Shown here: positions 42,395 to 57,828 of the stretch, piece after piece
Layout: every line of letters starts with the position of its first letter
Numbering within the stretch: the stretch's first letter is position 1
From: Solirubrobacter phytolaccae
GTDB lineage: Bacteria > Actinomycetota > Thermoleophilia > Solirubrobacterales > Solirubrobacteraceae
Direction of reading: 5' to 3'
NCBI RefSeq assembly: GCF_027587195.1
Contig: NZ_JAPDDP010000001.1
Coordinates: forward strand, 62,001 to 126,000
Length of the DNA: 64,000 nucleotides
Notes under the pieces: model-generated
Databases searched by the model: none
What the model saw: the letters and a program-made list of their open reading frames with translations, nothing else
What the model was told of the DNA's origin: nothing
Program-made: the position numbers and the translations under genes

Positions 42395-43120
42395 GTGAAG
42401 CGCTTCGTTGCGTTGGTCGCTGCTTTGAGCCTGGTGCCGGCGGGCACCGCCGCCGCGACCGGTGGGGGCCGGTCCGACGCGCTGAGGATCATCGACAACC
42501 CGCTGTTCGTCGCGGTCGACGGGCCGGGCTTCGTCGTCGGGCTGAGCCAGCTCGGCCTGTTCACGCACATCGACGACCGGCGGTTCGGCATCCCGCAGGC
42601 CGGGTTCCCGATCGTGCGCGAGTCGCAGCCGATGCCGACGACCGTGCGCCCGTTCCAGTGCGAGAACGGCACCTACCGCGTGGTGTCCGCGACGTTCGAG
42701 ACCGTCGAGCGGGCGTCGGTCACGGCGCTCCGGCCGCTGCCGTACCCGCCCGCGTTCGGGAACAGCTTCCCGGACATCTTTACGTTCGTCGGGACGCTCG
42801 ACGGCGCGGTCGTCCAGAACGAGGCCGGCGAGCAATTCAAGCTCTACATGTCCGACCTCGCCCACGAGGTGCTGACGAGCAAGTCGTTCACGTCGACGAA
42901 CCCGATCCACGCGTACTTCGTCGACTCGCGCGGCCGGGTGCGTGACCGCGCTTCGCTCGTCGGCCGGGTGAGCGTGGACCGCCGCACCGGCGAGGCCAAG
43001 CACGACATCGTCGACGAGGGCACATGCCATCAGACGGCGACGGTGCTCGGCCAGCCCGGCGTCAGCGTGTTCGGTCCGTTCTTCGTGCTCCCGTTCCCGA
43101 CGACGGTGGTCCGCCGCTAA
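42395..43120 (+). CDS. Secreted protein of unknown function
   Basis: A 241-residue exported protein. GTG start with strong Shine-Dalgarno GGAGGGAG (42382-42389). Signal peptide KRFVALVAALSLVPAGTAAA. The mature part is beta-rich (TYRVVSATFETVERASVTAL, FPDIFTFVGTLDGAVVQNE) with two cysteines (FQCENG and EGTCHQ). I cannot name a family. Divergent from the LAL regulator, which may control it. Its TAA interlocks with the convergent Ig-repeat protein's stop. Confidence 0.75.
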   Translation: MKRFVALVAALSLVPAGTAAATGGGRSDALRIIDNPLFVAVDGPGFVVGLSQLGLFTHIDDRRFGIPQAGFPIVRESQPMPTTVRPFQCENGTYRVVSATFETVERASVTALRPLPYPPAFGNSFPDIFTFVGTLDGAVVQNEAGEQFKLYMSDLAHEVLTSKSFTSTNPIHAYFVDSRGRVRDRASLVGRVSVDRRTGEAKHDIVDEGTCHQTATVLGQPGVSVFGPFFVLPFPTTVVRR

Positions 43121-46100
43121 CGGCGCTTCTTCGCGCCGAGCGACGTCTTCAGCGCCGCGGCCTTCCCGCCGGACAGGGTGGCCGTGGCGTTGAAGCGTCC
43201 GCGTGCGGTCGTCTTGACCGGGATCGTGAGGGTCACGATGCCCGTGCCCTTCGGGGGGCCGGTGACGACCGCGGTGCGGCCGGCGAGCTTGACCGTCGGC
43301 TTGCCGGCGCCCGAGAGCGTGGCGTTCTTGCCGAGCTTGTAGGTCGCGTGCTTGACGGTGCGGCCGGTGATCTGCAGCCCGCCGCCCCGCTTGATGGCCT
43401 TGGCCAGCGCGGGCGTCAGCTTGAAGCTCACGCCGCCGACGGCCCAGCGCGAGTCCACGCGCAGCAGCAGCGTACGGCTGCGGGCGCCGCGCTTCTGCGT
43501 GGCGGTGAGGATCGGCGCGCACTTGGCGGTGGCGATGACCAGCTTCACGGAGCGGGTGCGGCCCGTCTTCGGCGTGAGCTTGGCGACGATCGTGTGGTTG
43601 CGACCGGCGACGAGCTGGGCGGCGGTGACCTTGCCGCGGACGCGCTTGCCGTCCACGGTGATCGCGATCGCCTTGAGCTTGCGCGTCGGCCCGACGACGG
43701 CGAGCGTGGCCGGCGCGGCCTTGCTCACCTGCTTGCTGGAGGCCTTGAGCGCGAGCTTGAACTTGCCCGCGCCCGGGACGACCGAACTGCGCGCGATCGC
43801 CGTGCTCGAGAGCGTCGTGCACGCGGTCGGGGCGACGAGCGAGCCGGCGAGCGAGCCGAGGTCGCTGACGGCGGTGCCGGTGCCCGCGACGGCGGTGCCC
43901 GTGCCGGCGCTGTCGGTCACGACCACGGTCGCGCGGACGGTGAAGCCGCTGTCGGCGTCGGTGACGTCGTAGGTGTCGCCGGTCGCGCCCGGGATGTCCG
44001 TGCACACGCCGGCGGCGTCGCAGCGCTGCCACTGGTAGCGGTAGGTCGCGTCGCCCGTGGTCTGCCACTCGCCCTTGGTCGCGGTCAGGCGCTCACCCGG
44101 GGCGGGGTCGCCGGTGACCACCGGCGCGGTGACGAGCTGCGGGCCCGTCGCCTTGGCCGGAGCGACGACCGGCGCGGACGCGGCCTCCTCGACACCGGCC
44201 GAGCCGACGCCGTTGGACGCGGTCACGCGCGCCTTCAGGGCGTAGCCGACGTCGCTCGCCGTGAGCGTGTAGGACTGGGCGGTGGCGCCCGGGATGTCGG
44301 TGCACGTCGTGCCGGCCGTGTTGCAGCGCTGCCACTGGTAGGCGAGCACCGGGTCCGGCGTGCCGCTCCACTCGCCGTTGTTGGTGGTGACGGTCCGGCC
44401 GGCGGTGAAGACGCCGGAGACGACCGGCGCGACGGTGTTGACGGGGGCGGAGGCGACCAGCGCGGTCGGCTCGCCGACCTCGCTCGCCGTGCCGACGCCG
44501 TTGCTGGCGAGCACGCGGGCGCGGACGGTCTTGCCGCCGTCGGCGGCGACCAGCTTGTAGCTCGGGCCGGTGCCGACGAGCGCGCACGTCGCGCCGTCGC
44601 AGCGCTCCCACTGGGTGGCGTAGGTGATCGTCGCGGTGCCGGTCCAGGTGCCGTTCGAGGCGACGGTCAGCGTCGACCCGACGGCCGCCGTGCCGCTCAC
44701 CGTCGGCTTGACGGCGTTGACCGGGGGCGAGACCGTGATCGTCGCCGTGGCGGTGCCGTTCGCGCTCGCCGCGCCGACGCTGTTGGTCGCGGTGACGACC
44801 GGGCGCACGGTCTTGCCGACGTCGGTGGCGGTCAGCGTGTAGGTCTTGGCGGTGGCGCCGGCGATCGTCGTCCAGGTGCCGGAGACGTTGCGCTGCCAGG
44901 CGTAGGTGAACGTGGGCGCGGGGGAGCCGGTCCACGTGCCGTCGGTGGCGGTCAGCGTCGCGCCCTCGCGCACCAGGCCGGTCGCGGTCGGGGCGACCGT
45001 GTTCACGGGGGCGGCGTCGATCGCGGCGGTCGGGGTCGTGTCGGCGGTGGCGTTGCCGGCGGTGTTGGTGGCGGTCACGCGGGCACGGACCGTATTGCCC
45101 GTGTCGGCGGCGGCGAGCGTGTAGGTCGAGCTCGTGGCGCCGGCGATCGTCGTCCAGACGCCGTCGACGTTGCGCTGCCACGCGTACGTGTAGGTCAGCG
45201 GCGCGGTGCCGGTCCAGGTGCCGGTGGAGGTCGTGAGCGTCTGGCCGACGCGCTTGGTGCCGGTGACGGCCGGGGCGACGGTGTTGACCGGCGCGGTCGC
45301 GGCGATCGTCCCGGTGGCCGCGGTGGTCACGGGCGCGCTGCCGGCGCTGTTGGTCGCGGTCACGCGCGCCTTGAGCGTCTTGCCGGCGTCCGCGGCGGTG
45401 AGTGCATAGGTCTTGGCGGTCGCGCCGCTGATGTCGGTGCAGGTGCCGCTGACGCAGCGCTGCCACTGGTAGGCGTAGGTGAGCGGGCTCGTGCCGGACC
45501 AGGCGCCGTCGCCGACGGTCAGCGTCTCGCCGTCACGCTCGGTGCCGGTGATCGCCGGGACCGTCGTATTGAGCGGGGCGGCCGTGGCGGTCGCGGTCTG
45601 GGCGGAGGCGGCGGTCGCGTTGCCGGCCGCGTTGGTGGCCTTGACCTGGACGCGCAGCTTGGCGTCCTGGTCGGCGCGGGCGACCACATACGAAGCGGCA
45701 GTGGCGCCGGAGATGTCGGTCCAGGTCGAGCCGACGAGGCGCTGCCACTGGTAGGTGTAGGTCGCGGTCGGCGTGGCCGTCCAGGTGCCGGTGGAGGCGG
45801 TGAGCGTGTTCCCCGCGACCGGCGTGCCGGTGACGGCCGGGACGACCGTGTTGACCGGCGCCATCGTGACGACCGACGAGGCGGCGGTGACGTCGGCGGC
45901 GTTGCCCGCGGCGTTCGTCGCGGTGACCTTCGCCTTGACCGTCACGCCCGCGTCGGCGGCGACCAGCGTGTAGGTCTGGGCCGTGGCGCCGGCGATGTCC
46001 GCGCAGCCCGAGCCCGCCGCGTCGCAGCGTTGCCACTGGTAGGTGAAGGTCGGGGTCGTGCCGCTCCAGGTGCCGTTGGAGGTCGTGAGCGTCTGGCCGA

Positions 46101-47508
46101 CCTTGGTCGTGCCGGACAGCGCCGGATCGACGGTGTTGACCGGCGCGACGGCCGCGATCGTCGCGGTGGCGGCCGTGTTGGTCGTCGTGTTGCCGAGGTC
46201 GTTGGTGGCCTTGACCGCGGCCCGCACGGTGGTGCCGGCGTCGGCCGAGGCGAGCGTGTAGGTCTTCGCGGTGGCGCCGGCGATGTCGGTCCAGGTGCCC
46301 GAGACGTTGCGCTGCCACTGGTACGTGTACGCGAGGTCCGGCGTGCCGTTCCAGGTGCCGTCGGCGACCGTGAGCGTCTGGCCGTCGGTGGTCGTGCCGG
46401 AGACGGTCGGCGCGACCTCGTTGCTCGGCGCGTCCGGCGCGCGGTCGATCGCGGTGACGACCGCGGCCGGCGCGTAGACGTCGCCGGTGCTGGTGAAGGA
46501 CAGCGTGCCCGTGCTCGCGTTCGTCGCCAGCGCCCCCGACACGTTGAACACGTCGATGTCGGAGCCGAGCTGGTTCGGGTTGTTCGGGTTCTTGGCCGTG
46601 AACGCGACGCCGCTGCGCGTGTTGGAGGAGTTGAAGACGTCGCCGGCCGGGTTCAGGCCGTTGCTGAGCGCCGAGCCCGCGAACGTCGCCGTGTCACCGG
46701 TGCGGGTCGCGTCGCCCTCCCAGGCCACGATGCCCAGGCGCGCGGCCGGGGAGCCGCTCGGGACCTTCAGGCCGTTGACCGGGAAGGACACGGTGCCGCT
46801 CGTGCTCGAGACCGTCTTCAGGCCGTCCGCGACGCGCAGGTTGCGCTCGACCGAACCGCCCTTGTAGATCACGACGAGCGACCACGCGGCGTAGCGGTCG
46901 GCGCCCGTGCCGGCCTGGACGTTGGCGACCGTGTAGACGCCGTTGCCCGCGGCCTTGACCTGCGCGGTGACGTTCTTGAACGCGCTGTAGCGCGCCGTGC
47001 CGCCGTTCCAGGTGTCGAACGCGTCCGCGGTCTGCGACGCGTAGCTCGACGCGCCCGGCGTCTTGAAGAGCGCGACGCTCGCGAACGCCGCGTTCGGCGC
47101 CGCCGCCGGGGTCGGGGTGGAGGTGGCGCCCGACGGGATCGTCGCGTTCGCCGACGTGTCGCCGCTCCAGTACAGGCCCGCGAACAGCACGGTCGCGCCG
47201 GCCGGCATCGTCAGGGTCGAGGTGCTCGAGTCGAACGTGCTGCCGTCGCCGTCGACGTCTACGTAGGTCATGTTGAAGTCGTTGTCACGAGCACGCGTGG
47301 TCGCCGTGCCGCTCTGCGCAGCAGCACAGTCGGCGTCGGCGGCCGGGCAGGTCATGAGTCCATTGCCGATCAGCGCCATGTCGCCGTACTGGTCGGCGGC
47401 GAAGCGGGTGGTGAACTCCCGGTCCGCGCGGGCGGCGGGCGCGACGACGAGGACGGTCAGGACGGCAAGGGCGAAGGCGAGCACACGGCGGGTCATGCTC
47501 AAGGTCAT
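43117..47508 (-). CDS. Secreted Ig-like repeat surface protein
   Basis: About 1463 residues. Signal peptide MTRRVLAFALAVLTVLVVAP, cleaved near ARA. An N-terminal domain (~25-350) contains TVLFAGLYWSGDTS and WSLVVIYKGGSVERNLRVADG, as in DUF3344-type exported proteins. Then nine Ig-like repeats of ~95 residues (~355-1205), each of the form VNTVxPxVTGT...TYQWQR...DIxGAT...TYTL...VRxxVTATN. The C-terminal ~250 residues are beta-rich and Lys/Arg-rich. The start at 47508 or 47496 gives the signal peptide; the longer GTG at 47526 adds little. Likely a cell-surface or adhesin-like stalk; no enzyme motif seen. Confidence 0.85.
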   Translation of the reverse strand: MTLSMTRRVLAFALAVLTVLVVAPAARADREFTTRFAADQYGDMALIGNGLMTCPAADADCAAAQSGTATTRARDNDFNMTYVDVDGDGSTFDSSTSTLTMPAGATVLFAGLYWSGDTSANATIPSGATSTPTPAAAPNAAFASVALFKTPGASSYASQTADAFDTWNGGTARYSAFKNVTAQVKAAGNGVYTVANVQAGTGADRYAAWSLVVIYKGGSVERNLRVADGLKTVSSTSGTVSFPVNGLKVPSGSPAARLGIVAWEGDATRTGDTATFAGSALSNGLNPAGDVFNSSNTRSGVAFTAKNPNNPNQLGSDIDVFNVSGALATNASTGTLSFTSTGDVYAPAAVVTAIDRAPDAPSNEVAPTVSGTTTDGQTLTVADGTWNGTPDLAYTYQWQRNVSGTWTDIAGATAKTYTLASADAGTTVRAAVKATNDLGNTTTNTAATATIAAVAPVNTVDPALSGTTKVGQTLTTSNGTWSGTTPTFTYQWQRCDAAGSGCADIAGATAQTYTLVAADAGVTVKAKVTATNAAGNAADVTAASSVVTMAPVNTVVPAVTGTPVAGNTLTASTGTWTATPTATYTYQWQRLVGSTWTDISGATAASYVVARADQDAKLRVQVKATNAAGNATAASAQTATATAAPLNTTVPAITGTERDGETLTVGDGAWSGTSPLTYAYQWQRCVSGTCTDISGATAKTYALTAADAGKTLKARVTATNSAGSAPVTTAATGTIAATAPVNTVAPAVTGTKRVGQTLTTSTGTWTGTAPLTYTYAWQRNVDGVWTTIAGATSSTYTLAAADTGNTVRARVTATNTAGNATADTTPTAAIDAAPVNTVAPTATGLVREGATLTATDGTWTGSPAPTFTYAWQRNVSGTWTTIAGATAKTYTLTATDVGKTVRPVVTATNSVGAASANGTATATITVSPPVNAVKPTVSGTAAVGSTLTVASNGTWTGTATITYATQWERCDGATCALVGTGPSYKLVAADGGKTVRARVLASNGVGTASEVGEPTALVASAPVNTVAPVVSGVFTAGRTVTTNNGEWSGTPDPVLAYQWQRCNTAGTTCTDIPGATAQSYTLTASDVGYALKARVTASNGVGSAGVEEAASAPVVAPAKATGPQLVTAPVVTGDPAPGERLTATKGEWQTTGDATYRYQWQRCDAAGVCTDIPGATGDTYDVTDADSGFTVRATVVVTDSAGTGTAVAGTGTAVSDLGSLAGSLVAPTACTTLSSTAIARSSVVPGAGKFKLALKASSKQVSKAAPATLAVVGPTRKLKAIAITVDGKRVRGKVTAAQLVAGRNHTIVAKLTPKTGRTRSVKLVIATAKCAPILTATQKRGARSRTLLLRVDSRWAVGGVSFKLTPALAKAIKRGGGLQITGRTVKHATYKLGKNATLSGAGKPTVKLAGRTAVVTGPPKGTGIVTLTIPVKTTARGRFNATATLSGGKAAALKTSLGAKKRR
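43880..46440 (-). repeat. Nine tandem ~285-base Ig-like coding repeats
   Basis: Successive repeats begin near 46435, 46145, 45855, 45575, 45285, 45010, 44725, 44440 and 44135, each coding an Ig-like unit starting with N/L-T-V-x-P. Sequence identity is highest in the TWxGT, YQWQR and GATxxTYTL segments. Such arrays grow and shrink by recombination and are prone to assembly error. Confidence 0.8.
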
Positions 47509-47553
47509 CGGAGCGGTGACGATCACGTGAATCCTGGTTGCACCCGGGTTCTC

Positions 47554-47653: not shown

Positions 47654-49129
47654 ATGTCGATCGTCGAGCAGGAGCCCACGACCGCGACCGCCGAGGGGGA
47701 GACCCACCACGGCACGCTGATCCCGCGCGGCCAGGACGCGGTGCCCCGCTCGCCGCTGTTCGAGGGCCGCTTCGGGCGCATGTTCCGCTCGCTGCCCGCC
47801 CCGCGTCACGACCGCGACGCGCTGATCGCGCTCGGCAAGGCGATGGCGGACCGCGAGGCGCCGAGCGGCGACAACCCGAAGATCCCGTCGGCCTACACGT
47901 ACTTCGGCCAGTTCGTCGACCACGACATCACGTTCGACCCGCTCTCCGAGCTCAGCAAGTTCAACGACCCGGACGCGCTGACGAACTTCCGCTCACCGCG
48001 CTTCGACCTGGACTCGCTCTACGGCAACGGTCCGTCCGGCAGCCCGTTCCTGTACGAGTTCGCCAAGGCCGACCGGCGCGGCGTGCGGCTGCTGGAGGGC
48101 CGCAACCCCGAGGACAGCCCATTCGAGCGTCGCGACCTGCAGCGCAACGCCCAGGGCCGGGCGATCATCCCCGACCCGCGCAACGACGAGAACATCATCG
48201 TCTCCCAGCTGCACCACGCGTTCATCCGCTTCCACAACAACGTGGTGGAGAAGGTCGCCAAGGCCCAGCCGGCGCTCAAGGGCGCGGCGCTGTTCGCCGA
48301 GGCGCGGCGCGTGGTCACGTGGCACTACCAGTGGGTCGTGGTGCACGACTTCCTCCCGCGGATCATCGGTGAGGACCTGGCGAACGAGCTGCTCCCGGAC
48401 GCCGGTGAGCCGCAGCTGCGCTTCTTCGACCCGCGCGAAGGCGCGTTCATCCCGGTCGAGTTCTCCGGCGCCGCTTACCGCTACGGGCACAGCCAGGTCC
48501 GCCCGACCTACGACCTCAACGACATCGTCGTCGGCGTGCCGCTCTTCTCGGCCGCGAAGACCGCGGACGAGGACATCCTCGGCCACCTGAACGGCTTCCG
48601 GCCGCTGCCCGCGCTGTGGACGATCGACTGGCGCCACTTCGTCGAGATCGACGGCTCCCAGCCGCAGCTCACGCGCGAGATCGACACGCAGCTCGCGAAG
48701 CCGCTGCTCAAGCTCCCGGGCTCGATCGACGGCGCCAACACGGGCCTGCCGGTGCTCAACCTGCGCCGCGGCAAGGCCCTGCAGCTGCCGTCCGGGCAGG
48801 CGGTCGCGCAGGCCATCGGCGCGACACCCGTCAGCAACCTCGGGCTGGACCGCTTCAACCTGTCGGCGGCGCACCGGGCCGCGCTCGAGGCGGAGACGCC
48901 GCTCTGGTACTACGTCCTGCGCGAGGCCGAGAACGCGCCGCGCAACGGCCAGCGGCTCGGGCCGGTCGGCGGGCGGATCGTGGGCGAGGTGCTCGTCGGC
49001 CTGCTCGCGCACGACCCGCAGAGCTTCCTGCGCCAGCAGCCGACCTGGAAGCCGCAGGGCCTGAAGGCGGTCAAGGCGGGGCACTTCACGCTCGGCGACC
49101 TGCTGCGGTTCGCGACCATCGGGCAGTGA
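47654..49129 (+). CDS. Heme peroxidase, peroxinectin-like family
   Basis: A 491-residue animal-type heme peroxidase, a different subfamily from the gene at 636. Distal pair in FGQFVDHDITFDP (His90, Asp91), catalytic-region arginine likely in VRPTYDLN, proximal His279 in AYRYGHSQV, and the late RGKALQLPSGQ segment. GAGGAG (47641-47646) lies seven bases before the ATG. No signal peptide, so probably cytoplasmic; oxidises halides or organics with peroxide by family analogy. A strong hairpin follows the stop. Upstream lie phased TCAAG repeats. Confidence 0.93.
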   Translation: MSIVEQEPTTATAEGETHHGTLIPRGQDAVPRSPLFEGRFGRMFRSLPAPRHDRDALIALGKAMADREAPSGDNPKIPSAYTYFGQFVDHDITFDPLSELSKFNDPDALTNFRSPRFDLDSLYGNGPSGSPFLYEFAKADRRGVRLLEGRNPEDSPFERRDLQRNAQGRAIIPDPRNDENIIVSQLHHAFIRFHNNVVEKVAKAQPALKGAALFAEARRVVTWHYQWVVVHDFLPRIIGEDLANELLPDAGEPQLRFFDPREGAFIPVEFSGAAYRYGHSQVRPTYDLNDIVVGVPLFSAAKTADEDILGHLNGFRPLPALWTIDWRHFVEIDGSQPQLTREIDTQLAKPLLKLPGSIDGANTGLPVLNLRRGKALQLPSGQAVAQAIGATPVSNLGLDRFNLSAAHRAALEAETPLWYYVLREAENAPRNGQRLGPVGGRIVGEVLVGLLAHDPQSFLRQQPTWKPQGLKAVKAGHFTLGDLLRFATIGQ

Positions 49130-49193: not shown

Positions 49194-49236
49194 CGCGTTG
49201 ACACACCTCAACGGCGTCGGCCACCATCGCGTCCTG

Positions 49237-49788
49237 ATGCACGCGGATGTCATGGCGCCGCCGCGAGCGGCGAGTCTCGAGCTCCGCGCCTCGATGTCCT
49301 TCGACGAGTGGTCGGGGGTGGGCCGGCGGATCGCCCGTATCGCCAGCGGGAGCGCCTGGGCGCTGGGGGAGTGGCTGCTGTTCGGCGAGCGCCGGTTCGG
49401 CGCTCGCTACCGCTCCGCGATCGAGGCGACCGACCTCGACTACCAGACGCTGCGCAACTACGCCTGGGTCGCGCGCAACGTCGACGCGCCCCGGCGGCGC
49501 GACGAGCTGAGCTTCCAGCATCACGCGGAGGTCGCGTCGCTGCCGGCGCCCGAGCAGGACCTGTGGCTGCACCGGGCCGTGATGCACGGCTGGTCGCGCA
49601 ACGAGCTGCGCCGGCGGATGCGCGCGGACCGTGCCGCCGACCGCGCCGTGCCGGCGACGGTCGTGCGCGTCGAGGTCAGCTCGGACGTCGCCGAGCGCTG
49701 GCGGCGGGCCGCCGAGGCGGCCGACCAGGAGCTGCGCGAGTGGGTACGCGCGGTGACGACGGCCGCGGCCGACGCGACTCTCCACTAG
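49237..49788 (+). CDS. LmbU-like transcriptional regulator
   Basis: A 183-residue protein matching the LmbU family of actinomycete regulators: MSFDEWSGVGRRIARIASGS, WALGEWLLFGERRFGARYR, DLDYQTLRNYAWVARNV, LSFQHHAEVASLP and GWSRNELRRRM are the family blocks. LmbU activates lincomycin biosynthesis in Streptomyces; no antibiotic cluster is seen here, so its targets are unknown. ATG at 49237 or 49252 preferred over the TTG at 49198, which lies next to the terminator. No neighbouring gene is clearly linked. Confidence 0.85.
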   Translation: MHADVMAPPRAASLELRASMSFDEWSGVGRRIARIASGSAWALGEWLLFGERRFGARYRSAIEATDLDYQTLRNYAWVARNVDAPRRRDELSFQHHAEVASLPAPEQDLWLHRAVMHGWSRNELRRRMRADRAADRAVPATVVRVEVSSDVAERWRRAAEAADQELREWVRAVTTAAADATLH

Positions 49789-49900: not shown

Positions 49901-52099
49901 TCACCCCCGCCAGGTGCGCCGCTTGCCGAGCGTGTGGTCGAAGTCGCAGTGGATGAAGTAGCCACGCCCCTTCGCGTAGTAGCCGATCCCGCACTCGAAC
50001 GCCTTCTTGGCGTTCTCGTGGTGGCGATCGAGCGACACCCCGCTCGGCGGTTGCACGTCGACGGCGTACCCCCGCAGGTGGGCGGAGTTCGGCTCACCGC
50101 CGACCGACTTGTTGTACGGCTTCGAGCGGTAGGCCGAGGTGATGACCAGCCGCTTGCCGCCGTCGAGCTTCCGTAGGTGCTCGAGCCGCTTCGCGAGGCC
50201 CTTCGCGCGCAGCTTGGCCTCCTTGCGGCTAAGGCCCTGCTCGCGCATGAGCCCTGCGATGTACGTCGTGTGGCCGCGGTCCTTGCAGGCGAACTCCTTC
50301 ACGTTGAAGTTCGGCGTGAGCTGCCCGGGGATCGTGCGCCAGGCCGGGGTGGAGCGGACGGCGCGCTTGGCCGCGCTGTCGGTCGGCCACAACGGCTGCA
50401 GGAGCCGCATCAGCTCGCCGTCGAGCTGGCCGTCGACGCGCTGGCCGGCGACCCGCTGCGCGGCGCGGACGCCCTTCTCCCACACGCCGGTCGCGAGGTT
50501 GCGGCGCCCGGGGGCACGCGCGTCACGGCGCAGCTGCTTGCGCAGGGCGAGATCGGGGTCGCCCTGGCCCTTCAGGTAGCGGGCGAGCGCGAGCTTCGAG
50601 CGGCGCACGAACACGCCCGTGTCGCCGCGCTTGGCCACGACGGAGCGGCCGCCCTGCGCGGGCCCCGGGTCCGGCTTGCGGTCGGGCGTCGGCTTGGTGG
50701 GCAGCTTGCCGCTGCCGTTGCCGCCGTGCTCGGGGCGGCGCATCTTGTCGCGCACGGCCGGGACCTTGGTGCGCCGCGGCCGCAACGTCGCGAGCTCGGA
50801 CTCGGCGTCCTCGTAGCGCTCGATCAGCTCGGCGCGGGCGCGGTGGGCCATGCGGTCCAGCAGCGCGATCCGGCCCACGAGCTCCGCGTGGTCGAGCTCG
50901 GTCAGCGCGCGGCGCTTGGGCGGCGCCACCGGTGCGGTGGCGACCGGGGCCTCCGCGGGCGCCGTCGCCGTCGCCACGGAACCCGCCGGGACACCGGCGT
51001 CGATCACCGGCGGCGTGGGGGTGACGTCGATCACGGGTGGGCGCGGCCCGCCGGTCAGCAGCTCGGTCTGCCGCTCCTCGATCGTGATCAGGATGCCGAG
51101 CTTGGCCTCGATCCGCGCGAGCGCGTCGGCCAGCGCGTCCGACCCGCCGCCGTTCGGCGACGGGTGTGAGGGGTGCGCCTTCTCGTGCTCGAGCACCTCA
51201 CGCAGCCGGCCGCCGTACGCGAGCAGCTCCGCCCACGCGCGGTCCGACAGGGCGGCGCGGCGCTCGTAGTGGTTGACGAGCTCCGCCAGCGCGGGCTTCG
51301 GCTTGCGCGCGGGCGTGCCGGGCGTGGGCACAGGGCGCTTGCGGCGCGCCTTCTCGGCCCGCGTCGCGCGGTCGAGCGTGCGCAGCGTCTCCGCGCTCGC
51401 GACCCCCGTGCCCTTGAGCCCGTGCTGGCGCTGGAAGCGCTTGAGCGCGAGCTCGGTCTCGGCGTCGAACGTGGTCCGCTTGCCGTCCAGGTAGCCCTTG
51501 TGGGTCTTGGCGGCGCGCACGAACGAGAGCCGCCGGGTGAGGATCAGGACGGCCTTGCCCGTGTCGCCGCGCCGCAGCGACGTCGCCGGCGCCGGCGGCC
51601 GGGCGCCCGACAGCGTCTGGTGCCAGCGCCGGGCGCGGGCCCGGATGTCGCGGCTGTAGGCCTCGGCCGCGTCGCCGGTGCCGTTGTAGCGGCGGATGCC
51701 GTCCGGCTCACCGTGCGCGCGCATCAGCTTCACGAGGTTGCGGAAGCCGATCCGGATGTTGAAGCGCGGCTGCCAGCAGCCGCCCTCGGCGTCCGCCTCG
51801 TTCTGCCACTCCCACCAGGTCAGCTGCGCGGGGCCGACGCCCTGCATCCGGTGCCGGCCGCGCTGCGCGTCCCGCTGGCGCTTGTAGTCGAGGTACTTCT
51901 CGCGCGTCACGGCGCCCGCGCCGGCGAAGATCGTGTCGCGGTCGTGGCCGAAGACGTTCTGCCCGCCGGAGGACTCCTTCTCGAGGATCGCGCACGCGAG
52001 CGAGAGCCGCAGCCCTTCGCGCTTGGCCTCCTCGATCACCATCTCGGGGTTGAGGATCTTGCCGGCGCGCAGCCGGTCGACCTGGGTGGCCGCCGCCAT
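49901..52099 (-). CDS. Endolysin-like multidomain peptidoglycan hydrolase
   Basis: A 732-residue enzyme. N-terminal lysozyme/transglycosylase-like domain (~15-160; ACAILEKESSGGQN and VGPAQLTWWEW), a peptidoglycan-binding module (~170-250; LKRFQRQHGLKGTG), coiled-coil and Pro/Ala linker (~270-440), a second binding-like unit (~490-570), and a C-terminal M15 peptidase (FNVKEFACKDRG; SAHLRGYAVDV with His674/Asp681; YFIHCDFD). It should cut glycan and peptide bonds of peptidoglycan. No signal peptide; export may rely on the overlapping holin-like gene (TGATG). ATG at 52099 has GGAG seven bases upstream. Confidence 0.85.
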   Translation of the reverse strand: MAAATQVDRLRAGKILNPEMVIEEAKREGLRLSLACAILEKESSGGQNVFGHDRDTIFAGAGAVTREKYLDYKRQRDAQRGRHRMQGVGPAQLTWWEWQNEADAEGGCWQPRFNIRIGFRNLVKLMRAHGEPDGIRRYNGTGDAAEAYSRDIRARARRWHQTLSGARPPAPATSLRRGDTGKAVLILTRRLSFVRAAKTHKGYLDGKRTTFDAETELALKRFQRQHGLKGTGVASAETLRTLDRATRAEKARRKRPVPTPGTPARKPKPALAELVNHYERRAALSDRAWAELLAYGGRLREVLEHEKAHPSHPSPNGGGSDALADALARIEAKLGILITIEERQTELLTGGPRPPVIDVTPTPPVIDAGVPAGSVATATAPAEAPVATAPVAPPKRRALTELDHAELVGRIALLDRMAHRARAELIERYEDAESELATLRPRRTKVPAVRDKMRRPEHGGNGSGKLPTKPTPDRKPDPGPAQGGRSVVAKRGDTGVFVRRSKLALARYLKGQGDPDLALRKQLRRDARAPGRRNLATGVWEKGVRAAQRVAGQRVDGQLDGELMRLLQPLWPTDSAAKRAVRSTPAWRTIPGQLTPNFNVKEFACKDRGHTTYIAGLMREQGLSRKEAKLRAKGLAKRLEHLRKLDGGKRLVITSAYRSKPYNKSVGGEPNSAHLRGYAVDVQPPSGVSLDRHHENAKKAFECGIGYYAKGRGYFIHCDFDHTLGKRRTWRG

Positions 52100-52488
52100 C
52101 ACGCCACTCCGGCGGGCTGCTCGTCGCCCGCCTCCAGCGCGAGGGCGTCCTCGTCGTCGTCGAGCCCGGCGTGATCGAGGTCGAGATCCCAGTCGTCGTC
52201 CTCGTCATCGTCGTCGACCGCGGCCTCCTCGGCCGCGGCGGCGTGCGCGCTGTCGCTCGCGTCGGCGGCGGCGACGGCGATCGCGTCGCGCGCCTCCCAC
52301 TTCTGCCAGCCGTGCAGCCAGTGCAGCGCGGGGGCGAGGACGGCGACGGCGCCGGCGATGAAGATCTCCTGCAGCGTGTCCTGGGGGATGTTCACGCCCG
52401 GGAAGTTCTGCGCCAGCCAGGTGGCGCAGCCCCCGGCGGCGAGGGCCAGGACGGGGGTCAGCAGAGCGACGAGTCGGTTGAGCGGCAT
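52099..52488 (-). CDS. Holin-like small membrane protein with acidic tail
   Basis: A 129-residue protein with hydrophobic N-terminus (RLVALLTPVLALAAGGCATW, one or two membrane helices, with a possible second at QEIFIAGAVAVLAPALHWL) and a very acidic C-terminal half. GGAGGG lies eight bases before the ATG at 52488. Size, topology and its overlap with an endolysin-like gene match phage lysis cassettes, but no phage genes surround the pair. A lipobox-like LAAGGC raises the alternative of a lipoprotein. Confidence 0.7.
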   Translation of the reverse strand: MPLNRLVALLTPVLALAAGGCATWLAQNFPGVNIPQDTLQEIFIAGAVAVLAPALHWLHGWQKWEARDAIAVAAADASDSAHAAAAEEAAVDDDDEDDDWDLDLDHAGLDDDEDALALEAGDEQPAGVA

Positions 52489-52568
52489 TGGCAACGCCCT
52501 CCGTAGCGAGTGAGGTATCAGCAGTGCTGACCATCTCCGCAACGGCCGATCAAGGCAAGTCGCTTCGG

Positions 52569-53303
52569 CTAGGGTCGTTCGAGCTTGAAGTCCGCCACGG
52601 TGAGCCGGCCCTCGTACACGAGGAGCCACGCCCCGCCGTCGACCGGGTCGATCGCGCGCTTCTCGCCCGTCGCGCGGAGCGTCACCGTGCCCGGCTTGTC
52701 GGGTGTGGTGATGCCGTAGAGCAACGTGCGCGGGGGATCGCTGTCCACGTTCACGAGGTCGTTCGTCCGCTGGCCTCCGTCCTCGACGCAGACGCCGGGC
52801 CGCAGGTCGCTGAAGCGATGGAACGTGCCATAGCGCTCGAGCCCGAGCTGGTTGCCGCGGAGCTGGCCGGCGATCACACAGTCATTGCCGGCCGCCGAGG
52901 TATAGGTCGCCAAGCCGTAGGACACGTTGCGCTGCTCGTCTGGCGCAGTCGCAACGATGTCCATCCGCTCGCCGTTCGCGGCCGTGATCTTCGGGTCGCT
53001 CGCCTCAAGGCCCGGGGCCGGCTTGATCGGCTCGCCGACCGAGATCAGGCCCGTGCCCTCCGCGACGGCCGTGGCCCCGAGCAGCGCGAGCACCGCGAAC
53101 CCCGCGGTCCGGCGGTGGCGCCGGCGGCGGCGCCCGCGGTGAGCCGCGACCGCGCTCTCGTGCTCGCGCACGCCGGCGGCGACCAGCGCGTCGCGCAGCG
53201 CGGTCTGCGCGGTCCGGCTGGGGTCGGGCTCACGGTGCGCGGCCGCGACGAGCTGGTCGCGGATGCTGTTCTGCGCCGCCCGTGGATCGTCGGCGGCGCT
53301 CAC
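52569..53303 (-). CDS. Single-pass membrane protein, possible anti-sigma partner
   Basis: A 244-residue protein with an N-terminal cytoplasmic helical part, an arginine-rich stretch (RGRRRRRHRR) then one membrane helix (~68-86), and an extracytoplasmic domain with cysteines (DCVIAG, GVCVED). This topology resembles membrane anti-sigma factors, although the zinc-binding HxxxCxxC motif is absent. GTGA overlap with the ECF sigma gene supports a functional pair. Confidence 0.75.
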   Translation of the reverse strand: MSAADDPRAAQNSIRDQLVAAAHREPDPSRTAQTALRDALVAAGVREHESAVAAHRGRRRRRHRRTAGFAVLALLGATAVAEGTGLISVGEPIKPAPGLEASDPKITAANGERMDIVATAPDEQRNVSYGLATYTSAAGNDCVIAGQLRGNQLGLERYGTFHRFSDLRPGVCVEDGGQRTNDLVNVDSDPPRTLLYGITTPDKPGTVTLRATGEKRAIDPVDGGAWLLVYEGRLTVADFKLERP

Positions 53304-53905
53304 GCGATGTCCTCCACGACGTCGTCGTGCGCGGGCGGCGGGAGCGCGATCGCCAGGGCACGCAGGCCACGGGAGACGCGGGCGCGCGCGGTCGGCTCGG
53401 AGACGCCGAGCGTCGTGGCCAGTTCGGCGTAGGACAGGTCCTCCACGACCCGCAGCTCAACGGCCCGGCGCTGCTCGTCCGGGAGCCCGTGCATCGCGGC
53501 CAGCAGCGGCTCCTCGAGCGCGTTGATCCCGCTCAGCGACTCGATCCGGTCGTACTCGAGCGTGCTGAGCGAAGGGGTCGTGATCCGGAAGCGCTCGAGC
53601 GCCGCGCGTTCCACCCGACCAGAACGCCAGTAGTGCGACAACTCGGTGCGGGCAATCGCGAACAGCCATCCCTGTTCTTCCGCCGCGCTCGTGCCGCGGA
53701 ACTGCAGCCGCCGCTCGAGCGCCTTGGCGAACGTCTCTGACAGCAGGTCGAACGCGACCTCGGGGTCGAGGACGCGCCGCGCGAGGAACCGCAGGATGCG
53801 GTCCGCGTACGCGTCGTAGAAGGCGGAGAAAGCGCTCGGGTCTTCCTGCGCGTCAACGAGCAGGCTGTCCGAGGCTCGTTTGAGGAGACGAAGCCGGGGC
53901 CGCAC
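53300..53905 (-). CDS. ECF-type sigma factor
   Basis: A 201-residue sigma-70 family protein with region 2 (SAFYDAYADRILRFLARRVL, FDLLSETFAKAL) and region 4 (LPDEQRRAVELRVVEDLSYA and SEPTARARVSRGLRAL) and no regions 1 or 3. It should recruit RNA polymerase to stress or envelope promoters, held by the overlapping membrane protein. The GTG at 53905 is the only sensible start. Divergent from a small secreted-protein pair, a possible target. Confidence 0.9.
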   Translation of the reverse strand: MRPRLRLLKRASDSLLVDAQEDPSAFSAFYDAYADRILRFLARRVLDPEVAFDLLSETFAKALERRLQFRGTSAAEEQGWLFAIARTELSHYWRSGRVERAALERFRITTPSLSTLEYDRIESLSGINALEEPLLAAMHGLPDEQRRAVELRVVEDLSYAELATTLGVSEPTARARVSRGLRALAIALPPPAHDDVVEDIA

Positions 53906-55075: not shown

Positions 55076-57682
55076 CTACGGCTGGGTCGTGCTCAGCGTG
55101 AACGTGAGCGTCTTGCTGTACGAGCCGGTCCGGAGCGCGTCGTTGACTCCGATCGCCTGCGTGAACAGCACCTGGACCTGGTCGTTGGAGACCGGGCCCG
55201 TCCACGACGTCTTCGAGAGCGCCACCTGCAGCGGCTGCGGCAGCGAGAACGCGCCGTTGGTCATGTGGCCGGGATCGGACACCGCCAGGGTCGCGTCGCC
55301 CGCCGTCGAGATGACGTTGGCGAGCGTCGAGGTCGTGTACTCCTTCGCCACGCCCGGGATGAACGTCCCGAACGAGGCGGGCGTGCCGAGCGTGAGGCTC
55401 AGCGTCGCGGCGACCGTGCCACCCGGGGTGAAGGGCTGGTCGACGCCGTAGTCCGAGCAGCCGCCGTTGGCGTCATAGAAGCCACCGCCGGCGAGGCCCG
55501 GGCCCGTGATCTGCGGACGGTTGCCGTTCGCGGGCGTGCCCGTGTACGACGTGTCCCACCACTGCTTGAAGAACACGTCCAGCTTGTTCGAGCAGCCCTT
55601 GGACTGGTTCGGCATCCACTTGTGGAAGATCGCGATCTCCTGCTCCGGCGTGATCGCGCCGTAGCGGAAGTCGGTCTGGATCTGCTGGCTGGCCTTGTTG
55701 AAGTTCTCCGGGCCGAGAATCGCCCGCAGGGCCGTGTACGACAGGCCCGGGCGGGTGTAGGTGTTGGCCGTGGAGAACAGGTTGCCCGAGGTCGGGTTGT
55801 TCGGCGCGACGCCCCAGAACGTGCCGCTGGTGGTGGCGTAGCGGGAGTTGAAGCGGCTGACGATGCTCGCCTCGTAGGCCGCCTTGAACGCGTCCGAGCC
55901 CTCCGGACCGGCGGCGAGGCCGGCGTTGCGGGCGATGAACATGTACTCCGAGAAGTCCGCGTAGCCCTCCTTGAAGAACGTGTACTTCGGCTGGGCGTAC
56001 GACACGGCGTCGCCCCACCACTGGTGCATGTTCTCGTGGCTGAAGGTCTGCGCGTTGGACCCGATCGTGCCGCCGACGAACACGATCTTCGTCTGCATCT
56101 CCTCCTCGAAGGAGGCGCTCGGCAGCGCGACGACGATGCCGTTCGCGTTGAACTGGAACGGCCCGTTCACCGACTCCTGGAAGTGGGTGATGTCCTCCTG
56201 CATGTCCATGATGGCCTTGTTGGAGGCCTTGCGCGTGGCCGTGATGTTGGCCGACTGGTACTGGTAGTAGATGACGTCGCCGGCGGTGGCGACGCGCTGG
56301 CTGGCGTCGAAGTGGCCGACGCTGTTCTCCACCAGGTAGGAGGCGATCGGCTCGGCCGAGTGCCAGTTGAACGTGCGCGAGCCACCGGTGGGGTAGTTCG
56401 CGTCCGGCGCGTTGACGACCGTGGACACGAGCCGGCCCGGGCCGATGAAGACGCGGTTGGCCTCCGGCGCGACCGCCGGGTCGTAGTTGACCGTCGAGTG
56501 CACGTCGTAGGTCGGCTTGACGGACGCCTGGTTGTTGAGCGGCATCCAGGCCATCGAGCCGGACGGCTCGTTGGTGACCATCGCGCCGTCGCCGACCGGG
56601 CTGTTGTTGCGAAACCAACCCTCGGAGCCCAGCGACGGGTTCGAGCGGATGCCCGGCTGGCCCGTGTAGTTGATGACCACCTTGAAGGTCGTGCCGTTCG
56701 GGATCGGCTGCGCCGGCGTGATCACGAGCTTCGTCTCGCCGCACGGCGCGCCCTGGTTGGCGGCCGTGTTGTTGATCGGCGCGCAGGCCGGCGGGTTCGG
56801 GTTGGTCGCGCTCACCGGGTTGGTGTTGGAGGCGGCGTGCGCGAGCGGGTCGGGATCGTCCCAGCCCTTCGGATCGCCGGCGTAGGTCGGCTGCTTGTGC
56901 GAGAACGTGGCCGGGACGCCGTCGATCGTGATCGACGAGATCGTCATGTCCGGGCCCGGCGTGGTCGCCGTCGCGGAGATGTTGTTCTTGCGGTCGAAGT
57001 CCAAGCTGAACTCCGACAGGCACTGGGTCGACTTCTGCGTGAGCTCGACGTGGTTGCCCGGCAGGAACTTGTTGGTGACGGCGTCGTAGACGGTGAAGAC
57101 GTCGGTGTGGAGCGACGTGTAGCCGCCGTTGCCGAGCTCCGGCCAGACGCGGTTGCCCGGCTGGGAGAGCGTGCGGGCGCCCGGGGTGCAGTCGGCGGCC
57201 TGCGCGGCCTTGGCCTTCGCGGCACCGTTCTGCTGCTCGAACGCCTTGGTGGCGAGCTTGCCCTGGACGGGGTCGCCGCCCTTGATCTTCAGGTCGGCGG
57301 CGCTGGTGGCGCAGCCGAGCTTGCCGGCGTCCGCGCCGCCCTGCGGCGTGCACGCGGCGACGTAGTACGTGCCCTTCTTCAGGCTCGGCAGCTTCACGCT
57401 GACGAGAAAGCTCTTGGTGCCGTGGGCGGCGACGCCGACCTTGGCCTTGCCGATCAGCGCGCCGCCCGTCGAGCGGCGCATCACGCGCACGCTGACGTCG
57501 GCGGTGGCAGCGTGGTCGGTGTCGTTGGTGACGACGCCGGTGAGCGTTCCGGAGCCGGCTCCGGCCGGCAGTGAGCTGAGCGACGTGACGCCGACGCCCG
57601 CGGCGTGCGCGGCCGGTGCGCCGACCAGCGCGGCCAGCACGACTAATGACGCGCCGATGGCGCGCCTGGAACCCTTATTCAT
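55076..57682 (-). CDS. Secreted M1-family metallopeptidase
   Basis: An 868-residue exported enzyme. Signal peptide after MNKGSRRAIGASLVVLAALV, cleaved near AHA. A ~110-residue beta domain precedes the M1 fold. Zinc site HENMHQWWGD (His549, Glu550, His553) with the third ligand Glu572 in FFKEGYADF, spaced as expected. The usual GAMEN exopeptidase loop is replaced by a FEEEMQTK-type stretch. The C-terminal ~120 residues are a beta-sandwich, perhaps for surface attachment. Likely an extracellular aminopeptidase. Shine-Dalgarno-like GAGGGGG lies nine bases upstream of the ATG. Confidence 0.92.
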   Translation of the reverse strand: MNKGSRRAIGASLVVLAALVGAPAAHAAGVGVTSLSSLPAGAGSGTLTGVVTNDTDHAATADVSVRVMRRSTGGALIGKAKVGVAAHGTKSFLVSVKLPSLKKGTYYVAACTPQGGADAGKLGCATSAADLKIKGGDPVQGKLATKAFEQQNGAAKAKAAQAADCTPGARTLSQPGNRVWPELGNGGYTSLHTDVFTVYDAVTNKFLPGNHVELTQKSTQCLSEFSLDFDRKNNISATATTPGPDMTISSITIDGVPATFSHKQPTYAGDPKGWDDPDPLAHAASNTNPVSATNPNPPACAPINNTAANQGAPCGETKLVITPAQPIPNGTTFKVVINYTGQPGIRSNPSLGSEGWFRNNSPVGDGAMVTNEPSGSMAWMPLNNQASVKPTYDVHSTVNYDPAVAPEANRVFIGPGRLVSTVVNAPDANYPTGGSRTFNWHSAEPIASYLVENSVGHFDASQRVATAGDVIYYQYQSANITATRKASNKAIMDMQEDITHFQESVNGPFQFNANGIVVALPSASFEEEMQTKIVFVGGTIGSNAQTFSHENMHQWWGDAVSYAQPKYTFFKEGYADFSEYMFIARNAGLAAGPEGSDAFKAAYEASIVSRFNSRYATTSGTFWGVAPNNPTSGNLFSTANTYTRPGLSYTALRAILGPENFNKASQQIQTDFRYGAITPEQEIAIFHKWMPNQSKGCSNKLDVFFKQWWDTSYTGTPANGNRPQITGPGLAGGGFYDANGGCSDYGVDQPFTPGGTVAATLSLTLGTPASFGTFIPGVAKEYTTSTLANVISTAGDATLAVSDPGHMTNGAFSLPQPLQVALSKTSWTGPVSNDQVQVLFTQAIGVNDALRTGSYSKTLTFTLSTTQP

Positions 57683-57828
57683 TGGTTTGACCCCCTCGTT
57701 GCGACGCGAGTAGGAGCCGAGCGTTCCACGGTGCTGACGAGGAGTCAATTCCCCCGCCGTGGAGCGGAATCAACAGATGAACATCACCTGAGTGTGGGAT
57801 TGCTAACCGCTGAGCCACAAGGGCAGGC

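What the first reader, a model, noticed from the sequence alone, without database searches (positions are those of the whole stretch)
49901..52488. Isolated holin/endolysin-like pair
A small hydrophobic protein with acidic tail is translationally coupled to an enzyme with lysozyme-like, binding and M15 peptidase domains. No phage structural genes are nearby. It could be a domesticated lysis cassette used for protein release, sporulation or programmed lysis, and it sits beside an ECF sigma operon.
Basis: inference. Interest (0 to 1): 0.6.

Follow-up and report, generated by a model that had tools for sequence, protein, structure and literature searches.

The report
Chromosomal phage-derived holin–endolysin lysis cassette
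A soil actinobacterium (genus Solirubrobacter) carries, far from any virus genes and directly behind a gene for a stress-type sigma factor, a membrane-hole protein and a cell-wall-cutting enzyme of phage origin that have been kept intact in a related species, so the cell probably uses them to burst itself or to let proteins out.

Summary
At 52102–52488(−) lies a 129-aa protein with two hydrophobic segments and a very acidic tail. It overlaps a 733-aa enzyme (49901–52102, −) with an N-terminal goose-lysozyme/transglycosylase-type domain, PG-binding module(s) and a C-terminal M15 peptidase. ECF sigma, anti-sigma-like, holin and lysin genes follow one another on one strand. Relatives of the small protein occur on IMG/VR phage contigs, some beside verified endolysins, and the N-terminal domain is a phage endolysin domain (34 viral contigs): the parts are phage lysis parts. 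No phage structural gene was seen nearby. The locus is syntenic in a second Solirubrobacter genome (77–81% identity), and neutral simulation rejects decay of the lysin. Four housekeeping-flanked chromosomal holins have acidic tails (net −19 to −25); phage-borne and DUF6519/injection-system-linked ones do not (0 to −9). Best reading: a domesticated, sigma-linked lysis/release cassette, resembling clostridial sigma–holin–endolysin modules and type 10 secretion. Cargo, trigger, co-transcription and whether cells die are unknown. A link to contractile injection systems is possible (two relatives; a sheath gene in all six genus genomes sampled) but is not shown for this locus.

The parts
52099..52488 (-). 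Holin-like membrane protein, 129 aa; two hydrophobic segments (about 1-27 and 37-61), acidic C-terminal tail
   Evidence: (AlphaFold: helices 3-28 and 36-92, tail unstructured; mean pLDDT 71); homologues
49901..52102 (-). Bifunctional endolysin, 733 aa: N-terminal transglycosylase/goose-lysozyme-type domain, PG-binding module(s), low-conservation linker, M15 peptidase; no signal peptide by eye
51602..52099 (-). N-terminal GEWL/SLT-like domain; invariant E42 and the QGxGxxQLT and YN motifs
51374..51499 (-). PG_binding_1 module (best Pfam stretch, lysin residues 202-243)
   Evidence: the surrounding segment is the part shared with the lysins of G022 and G194
49943..50236 (-). C-terminal peptidase M15_3 domain (lysin residues 623-720), SxHxxGxAxD motif present
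   Evidence: matches Zn D-Ala-D-Ala carboxypeptidase 1lbu, E 4e-4
53300..53905 (-). ECF-type sigma-70 factor, 201 aa
52569..53303 (-). Probable anti-sigma partner, 244 aa, one hydrophobic segment, overlaps the sigma gene by 4 nt; no family hit
   Evidence: paralogues; role inferred from position
52489..52568 (-). 80-nt gap between anti-sigma-like gene and holin with conserved Shine-Dalgarno-like CTACGGAGGGCG; no sigma-70-type promoter or intrinsic terminator recognised

Best explanation
A phage-derived lysis cassette kept by the bacterium as its own gene set. Shown: the parts are of phage-lysis kind, the locus is not in a recognisable prophage, and the genes are intact in two species, with the lysin clearly under purifying selection. 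Inferred: the ECF sigma factor turns the downstream genes on in some condition; the small protein inserts as a two-helix hairpin and permeabilises the membrane; the lysin, which has no export signal, passes through and cuts glycan strands (N-domain) and stem peptides (M15 domain), while its binding modules hold it on the wall. The outcome is either programmed lysis of a subpopulation or controlled release of signal-less proteins or particles. The acidic tail, found only in the housekeeping-flanked chromosomal copies, is proposed to restrain or time the holin.
For: Relatives of the small protein lie on five IMG/VR contigs. On L100 it directly follows an endolysin (PHROG E 4e-19); on L102 it follows a homologue of this lysin's N-domain (E 8e-26). 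A more distant relative on L110 sits between a VanY-like peptidase and an N-domain homologue, the same three activities as here. The N-domain is encoded on 34 viral contigs, often as a small standalone protein. No phage genes among the neighbours scanned. Syntenic orthologues in G063. dN/dS (NG86) 0.34 holin, 0.39 lysin; YN00 0.10 and 0.04; neutral simulation gives a mean of 6.8 stops in the lysin and none of 300 runs intact. Housekeeping-flanked relatives in G022 and G194. Acidic-tail split. Sigma-holin-endolysin sets are known in clostridia (PMC9527704).
Against: The sigma association is seen in only two genomes; relatives in G022 and G194 have no sigma gene beside them. The 80-nt gap before the holin could hold a separate promoter. 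Three of seven Solirubrobacter genomes lack the holin. No cargo gene is evident. NG86 dN/dS of 0.34-0.39 is moderate, and the neutral simulation is uninformative for the short holin (29% of runs stay intact). The acidic tail's role is a guess.
Confidence: 0.62

Rival explanations
1. Remnant of a prophage: only the lysis genes survive, with no function for the host.
For: Parts are clearly phage-like; patchy distribution, 4 of 7 genus genomes.
Against: Intact and syntenic in two species at 77-81% identity; neutral decay of the lysin is rejected (0 of 300 simulations intact); two further lineages keep such pairs among housekeeping genes, with an acidic tail not seen in the phage copies.
Confidence: 0.15
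2. Release module for phage-tail-like contractile injection particles: the pair lyses the producer so that assembled particles escape.
For: In G170 the holin, a VanY-type and a GH25 lysin end an operon with CIS-tube-, baseplate-J- and P2-gpI-like and DUF6519 genes; in G201 a lysin-holin frame lies beside a DUF6519 gene; the own genome has an injection-system locus with sheath and tube genes on another contig, and all six genus genomes in that sample have a sheath gene. Such particles are released by lysis of the producer (PMC10598620).
Against: Three of the sheath-bearing genus genomes lack the holin; the holins in G170 and G201 are of the non-acidic class; G022 has the holin but no sheath hit; the injection-system locus of this genome is on a different contig.
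Confidence: 0.15
3. Not a holin: a membrane anchor or regulator for a wall-remodelling hydrolase used in growth or development.
For: Acidic tail and long second helix are unlike a minimal holin; weak spore-cortex-lytic-enzyme similarity of the PG-binding part only.
Against: Homologues sit beside endolysins on phage contigs, and the enzyme has no evident export signal, so something must let it out.
Confidence: 0.08

Closest known systems
Holin-endolysin lysis cassettes of phages of actinobacteria (e.g. Gordonia phages, PMC9671378)
   Same: Small membrane protein directly beside an endolysin; same kinds of catalytic domain
   Different: Here chromosomal, without other phage genes, both catalytic domains fused in one 733-aa enzyme, acidic holin tail, sigma factor upstream
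Sigma factor-holin-endolysin modules of clostridia: TcdR/TcdE-type loci and UviA/UviB (Bcn5) (PMC9527704)
   Same: Alternative sigma gene next to holin and endolysin, thought to release signal-less proteins
   Different: No sequence relation was tested; here there is an anti-sigma-like gene and no recognisable toxin or bacteriocin gene
Type 10 secretion systems (Serratia, Yersinia, Salmonella)
   Same: Phage-derived lysis genes taken over for protein release; M15-type peptidase in some (from memory)
   Different: No spanin gene seen; cargo unknown; no experiment
Lysis genes of extracellular contractile injection systems
   Same: A related holin stands at the end of such an operon in G170
   Different: This locus is not linked to one

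Membership tests
Phage-type holin-endolysin cassette | Small protein with two or more membrane segments, homologous to phage proteins beside endolysins | tested here: met
Phage-type holin-endolysin cassette | Peptidoglycan-cutting enzyme without signal peptide next to it | tested here: met
   absence of a signal peptide judged by eye only
Phage-type holin-endolysin cassette | Membrane permeabilisation at a set time | not testable with these tools
   needs expression
Prophage | Structural, packaging or integration genes around the lysis genes | tested here: not met
   neighbours in the window and the next contig stretch against PHROGs: no such genes apart from a match of the Ig-like repeat protein 43117-47526 to a virion protein, taken as a repeat match; not every ORF was scanned
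Type 10 secretion system | Phage-derived holin plus endolysin kept outside a prophage | tested here: met
Type 10 secretion system | Release of a defined cargo | not testable with these tools
   no cargo gene recognised; the haem peroxidase nearby is only a candidate
Sigma-holin-endolysin modules (TcdR/UviA type) | Dedicated sigma factor controls the holin | tested here: inconclusive
   same-strand order in G000 and G063; no promoter motif established
eCIS lysis module | Encoded with injection-system genes | tested here: not met
   not at this locus; met for the relative in G170
Lipoprotein | Lipobox cysteine | tested here: not met
   C21 context AGGC is not a proper lipobox and the cysteine is not conserved

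The most novel reading that the evidence does not exclude
A sigma-factor-controlled, holin-dependent release system native to Solirubrobacter, in which an acidic tail added to a phage holin turns an all-or-nothing lysis pore into a restrained, signal-gated one that frees signal-less proteins or injection particles.
Probability: 0.25. Interest if true: 0.75.

Novelty: new variant of a known kind. Interest (0 to 1): 0.45.

Why it matters
Holin-based protein release is known mostly from enterobacteria and clostridia. A conserved chromosomal cassette behind an ECF sigma factor in a deep-branching group of soil actinobacteria would extend it, give a handle on how injection particles or signal-less proteins leave such cells, and offer a sequence mark (the acidic tail) for telling domesticated holins from phage ones. 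It also points to a phage endolysin domain that Pfam did not recognise.

Tried and rejected
tblastn of the holin against INPHARED phages: none; of the lysin: only the M15 part in the hits listed. A first viral scan with the single holin sequence found nothing, and one with the single N-domain sequence found nothing; alignments did. The G168 hit was rejected as spurious (reading across a cysN/cysD-like region). A phylum-wide profile search gave only two borderline hits beyond this genome. The PG-binding profile A7 proved generic. An attempt to see the sigma-holin unit as an insertion by synteny of the M1 peptidase failed: the surroundings are not conserved in G194 and G201. DUF6519 was absent from the Solirubrobacter injection-system genomes tested. 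No sigma-70-type promoter or terminator was found. The holin tree rests on 72 columns and does not resolve the chromosomal copies, though four of five phage copies form a clade.

Full report
Setting. The window is G000:C81:62001-126000 of a 7.7-Mb genome.

The observation. The two ORFs are as described. The small protein has two hydrophobic stretches and a tail with 23 acidic and no basic residues out of 61. AlphaFold gives two helices, 3-28 and 36-92, then disorder (mean pLDDT 71). The lysin overlaps it by four bases. Pfam sees PG_binding_1 twice and Peptidase_M15_3. Its N-terminal 166 residues are not recognised by Pfam, but with 30 aligned sequences they model at pLDDT 94. They resemble lytic transglycosylases and goose lysozymes, weakly in the PDB (best E 2e-3, TM about 0.6) and better among viral models, PRD1 transglycosylase included. 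E42 and the QGxGxxQLT and YN motifs are invariant. The M15 domain matches Streptomyces Zn carboxypeptidase 1lbu (E 4e-4), with the His and Asp of SxHxxGxAxD present.

Phage origin. Relatives of the small protein are on five IMG/VR contigs. On L100 it directly follows an endolysin. On L102 it follows a homologue of this lysin's N-domain (E 8e-26). On L101 a CHAP/NlpC-like enzyme, by eye only (no PHROG hit), precedes it. On L066 the preceding gene looks VanY-like by eye only. On L067 no lysin was recognised upstream. L110 has a VanY-like peptidase, a distant holin relative (E 1.4e-4) and the N-domain in a row. The N-domain itself is on 34 viral contigs.

Not a recognisable prophage here. The neighbours scanned give no phage structural, packaging or integration genes; the one structural PHROG match is to the Ig-like repeat protein 43117-47526 and is taken as a repeat match. 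The same order - haem peroxidase, LmbU-type regulator, lysin, holin, anti-sigma-like, sigma, M1-type peptidase - stands in G063 (LmbU family). NG86 dN/dS is 0.34 and 0.39 for holin and lysin, against 0.12-0.39 for neighbours. Neutral simulation at the observed synonymous distance leaves no intact lysin in 300 runs (mean 6.8 stops); for the short holin 29% stay intact, so it is uninformative alone.

Relatives and the tail. Order-wide, holin relatives were found in few genomes. G022 and G194 have pairs among housekeeping genes. Their lysins share the PG-binding part and, for G022, much of the linker, but have other N-terminal catalytic domains (Rv2525c-like; GH19-like) and divergent C-terminal ends. 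The four chromosomal holins (G000, G063, G022, G194) have net tail charge -19 to -25; the phage copies and those of G170 and G201 have 0 to -9. In G170 the holin stands with two lysins at the end of an injection-system operon; in G201 it is in one frame with a GH24+VanY+PG-binding lysin beside a DUF6519 gene.

Mechanism. Holin pore, lysin export, wall cutting, and lysis or release follow from the parts and from what is established for phage lysis. Control by the ECF factor is inferred from gene order alone. Sigma-holin-endolysin sets in clostridia (PMC9527704) and type 10 secretion (papers listed) are the nearest working models. Lysis for release of injection particles (PMC10598620) is a live alternative because the genome has such a system, but three sheath-bearing genus genomes lack the holin.

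Verdict. A real, phage-derived, apparently domesticated lysis cassette; a new variant of a known kind. Its use by the cell is not settled.

Noticed in passing
window 55076-57748 (-), residues about 770-890: The C-terminal segment of about 115 aa of the M1-type peptidase recurs in roughly 80-150 places per Solirubrobacter genome (listed matches 57-79% identical), without a Pfam hit; it looks like a lineage-specific sorting or anchoring domain. It is also on the M36 peptidase beside the holin-lysin pair of G194.
   Followed up: partly
window 49198-49788 (+): LmbU-family transcriptional regulator (NCBIfam NF038070, E 1.9e-58), convergent with the lysin gene and conserved beside it in G063.
   Followed up: partly
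window 47654-49129 (+): Animal-type haem peroxidase (PF03098) without an obvious signal peptide; a possible but untested cargo of the release cassette.
   Followed up: no
L094 8228-8737 (G022:C75): Standalone homologue of the lysin N-domain in a 17.9-kb contig whose neighbours look like a tailless virus or provirus by eye; the gene guessed to be the capsid has no PHROG hit.
   Followed up: partly
L090 9819-11450 (-) (G201): GH24 lysozyme, VanY peptidase, PG-binding module and holin in a single open frame: a possible fused lysin-holin.
   Followed up: partly
L032 9440-15538 and L053/L054 (G000:C117, G063:C1): Contractile injection system locus with sheath and tube genes, conserved in Solirubrobacter; no holin noticed in the G063 locus.
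   Followed up: partly
window 51602-52099 (-): The phage endolysin domain on 34 viral contigs gave no Pfam hit in the members tested and no PHROG hit in the two tested (window, L102), although its fold is transglycosylase-like.
   Followed up: partly
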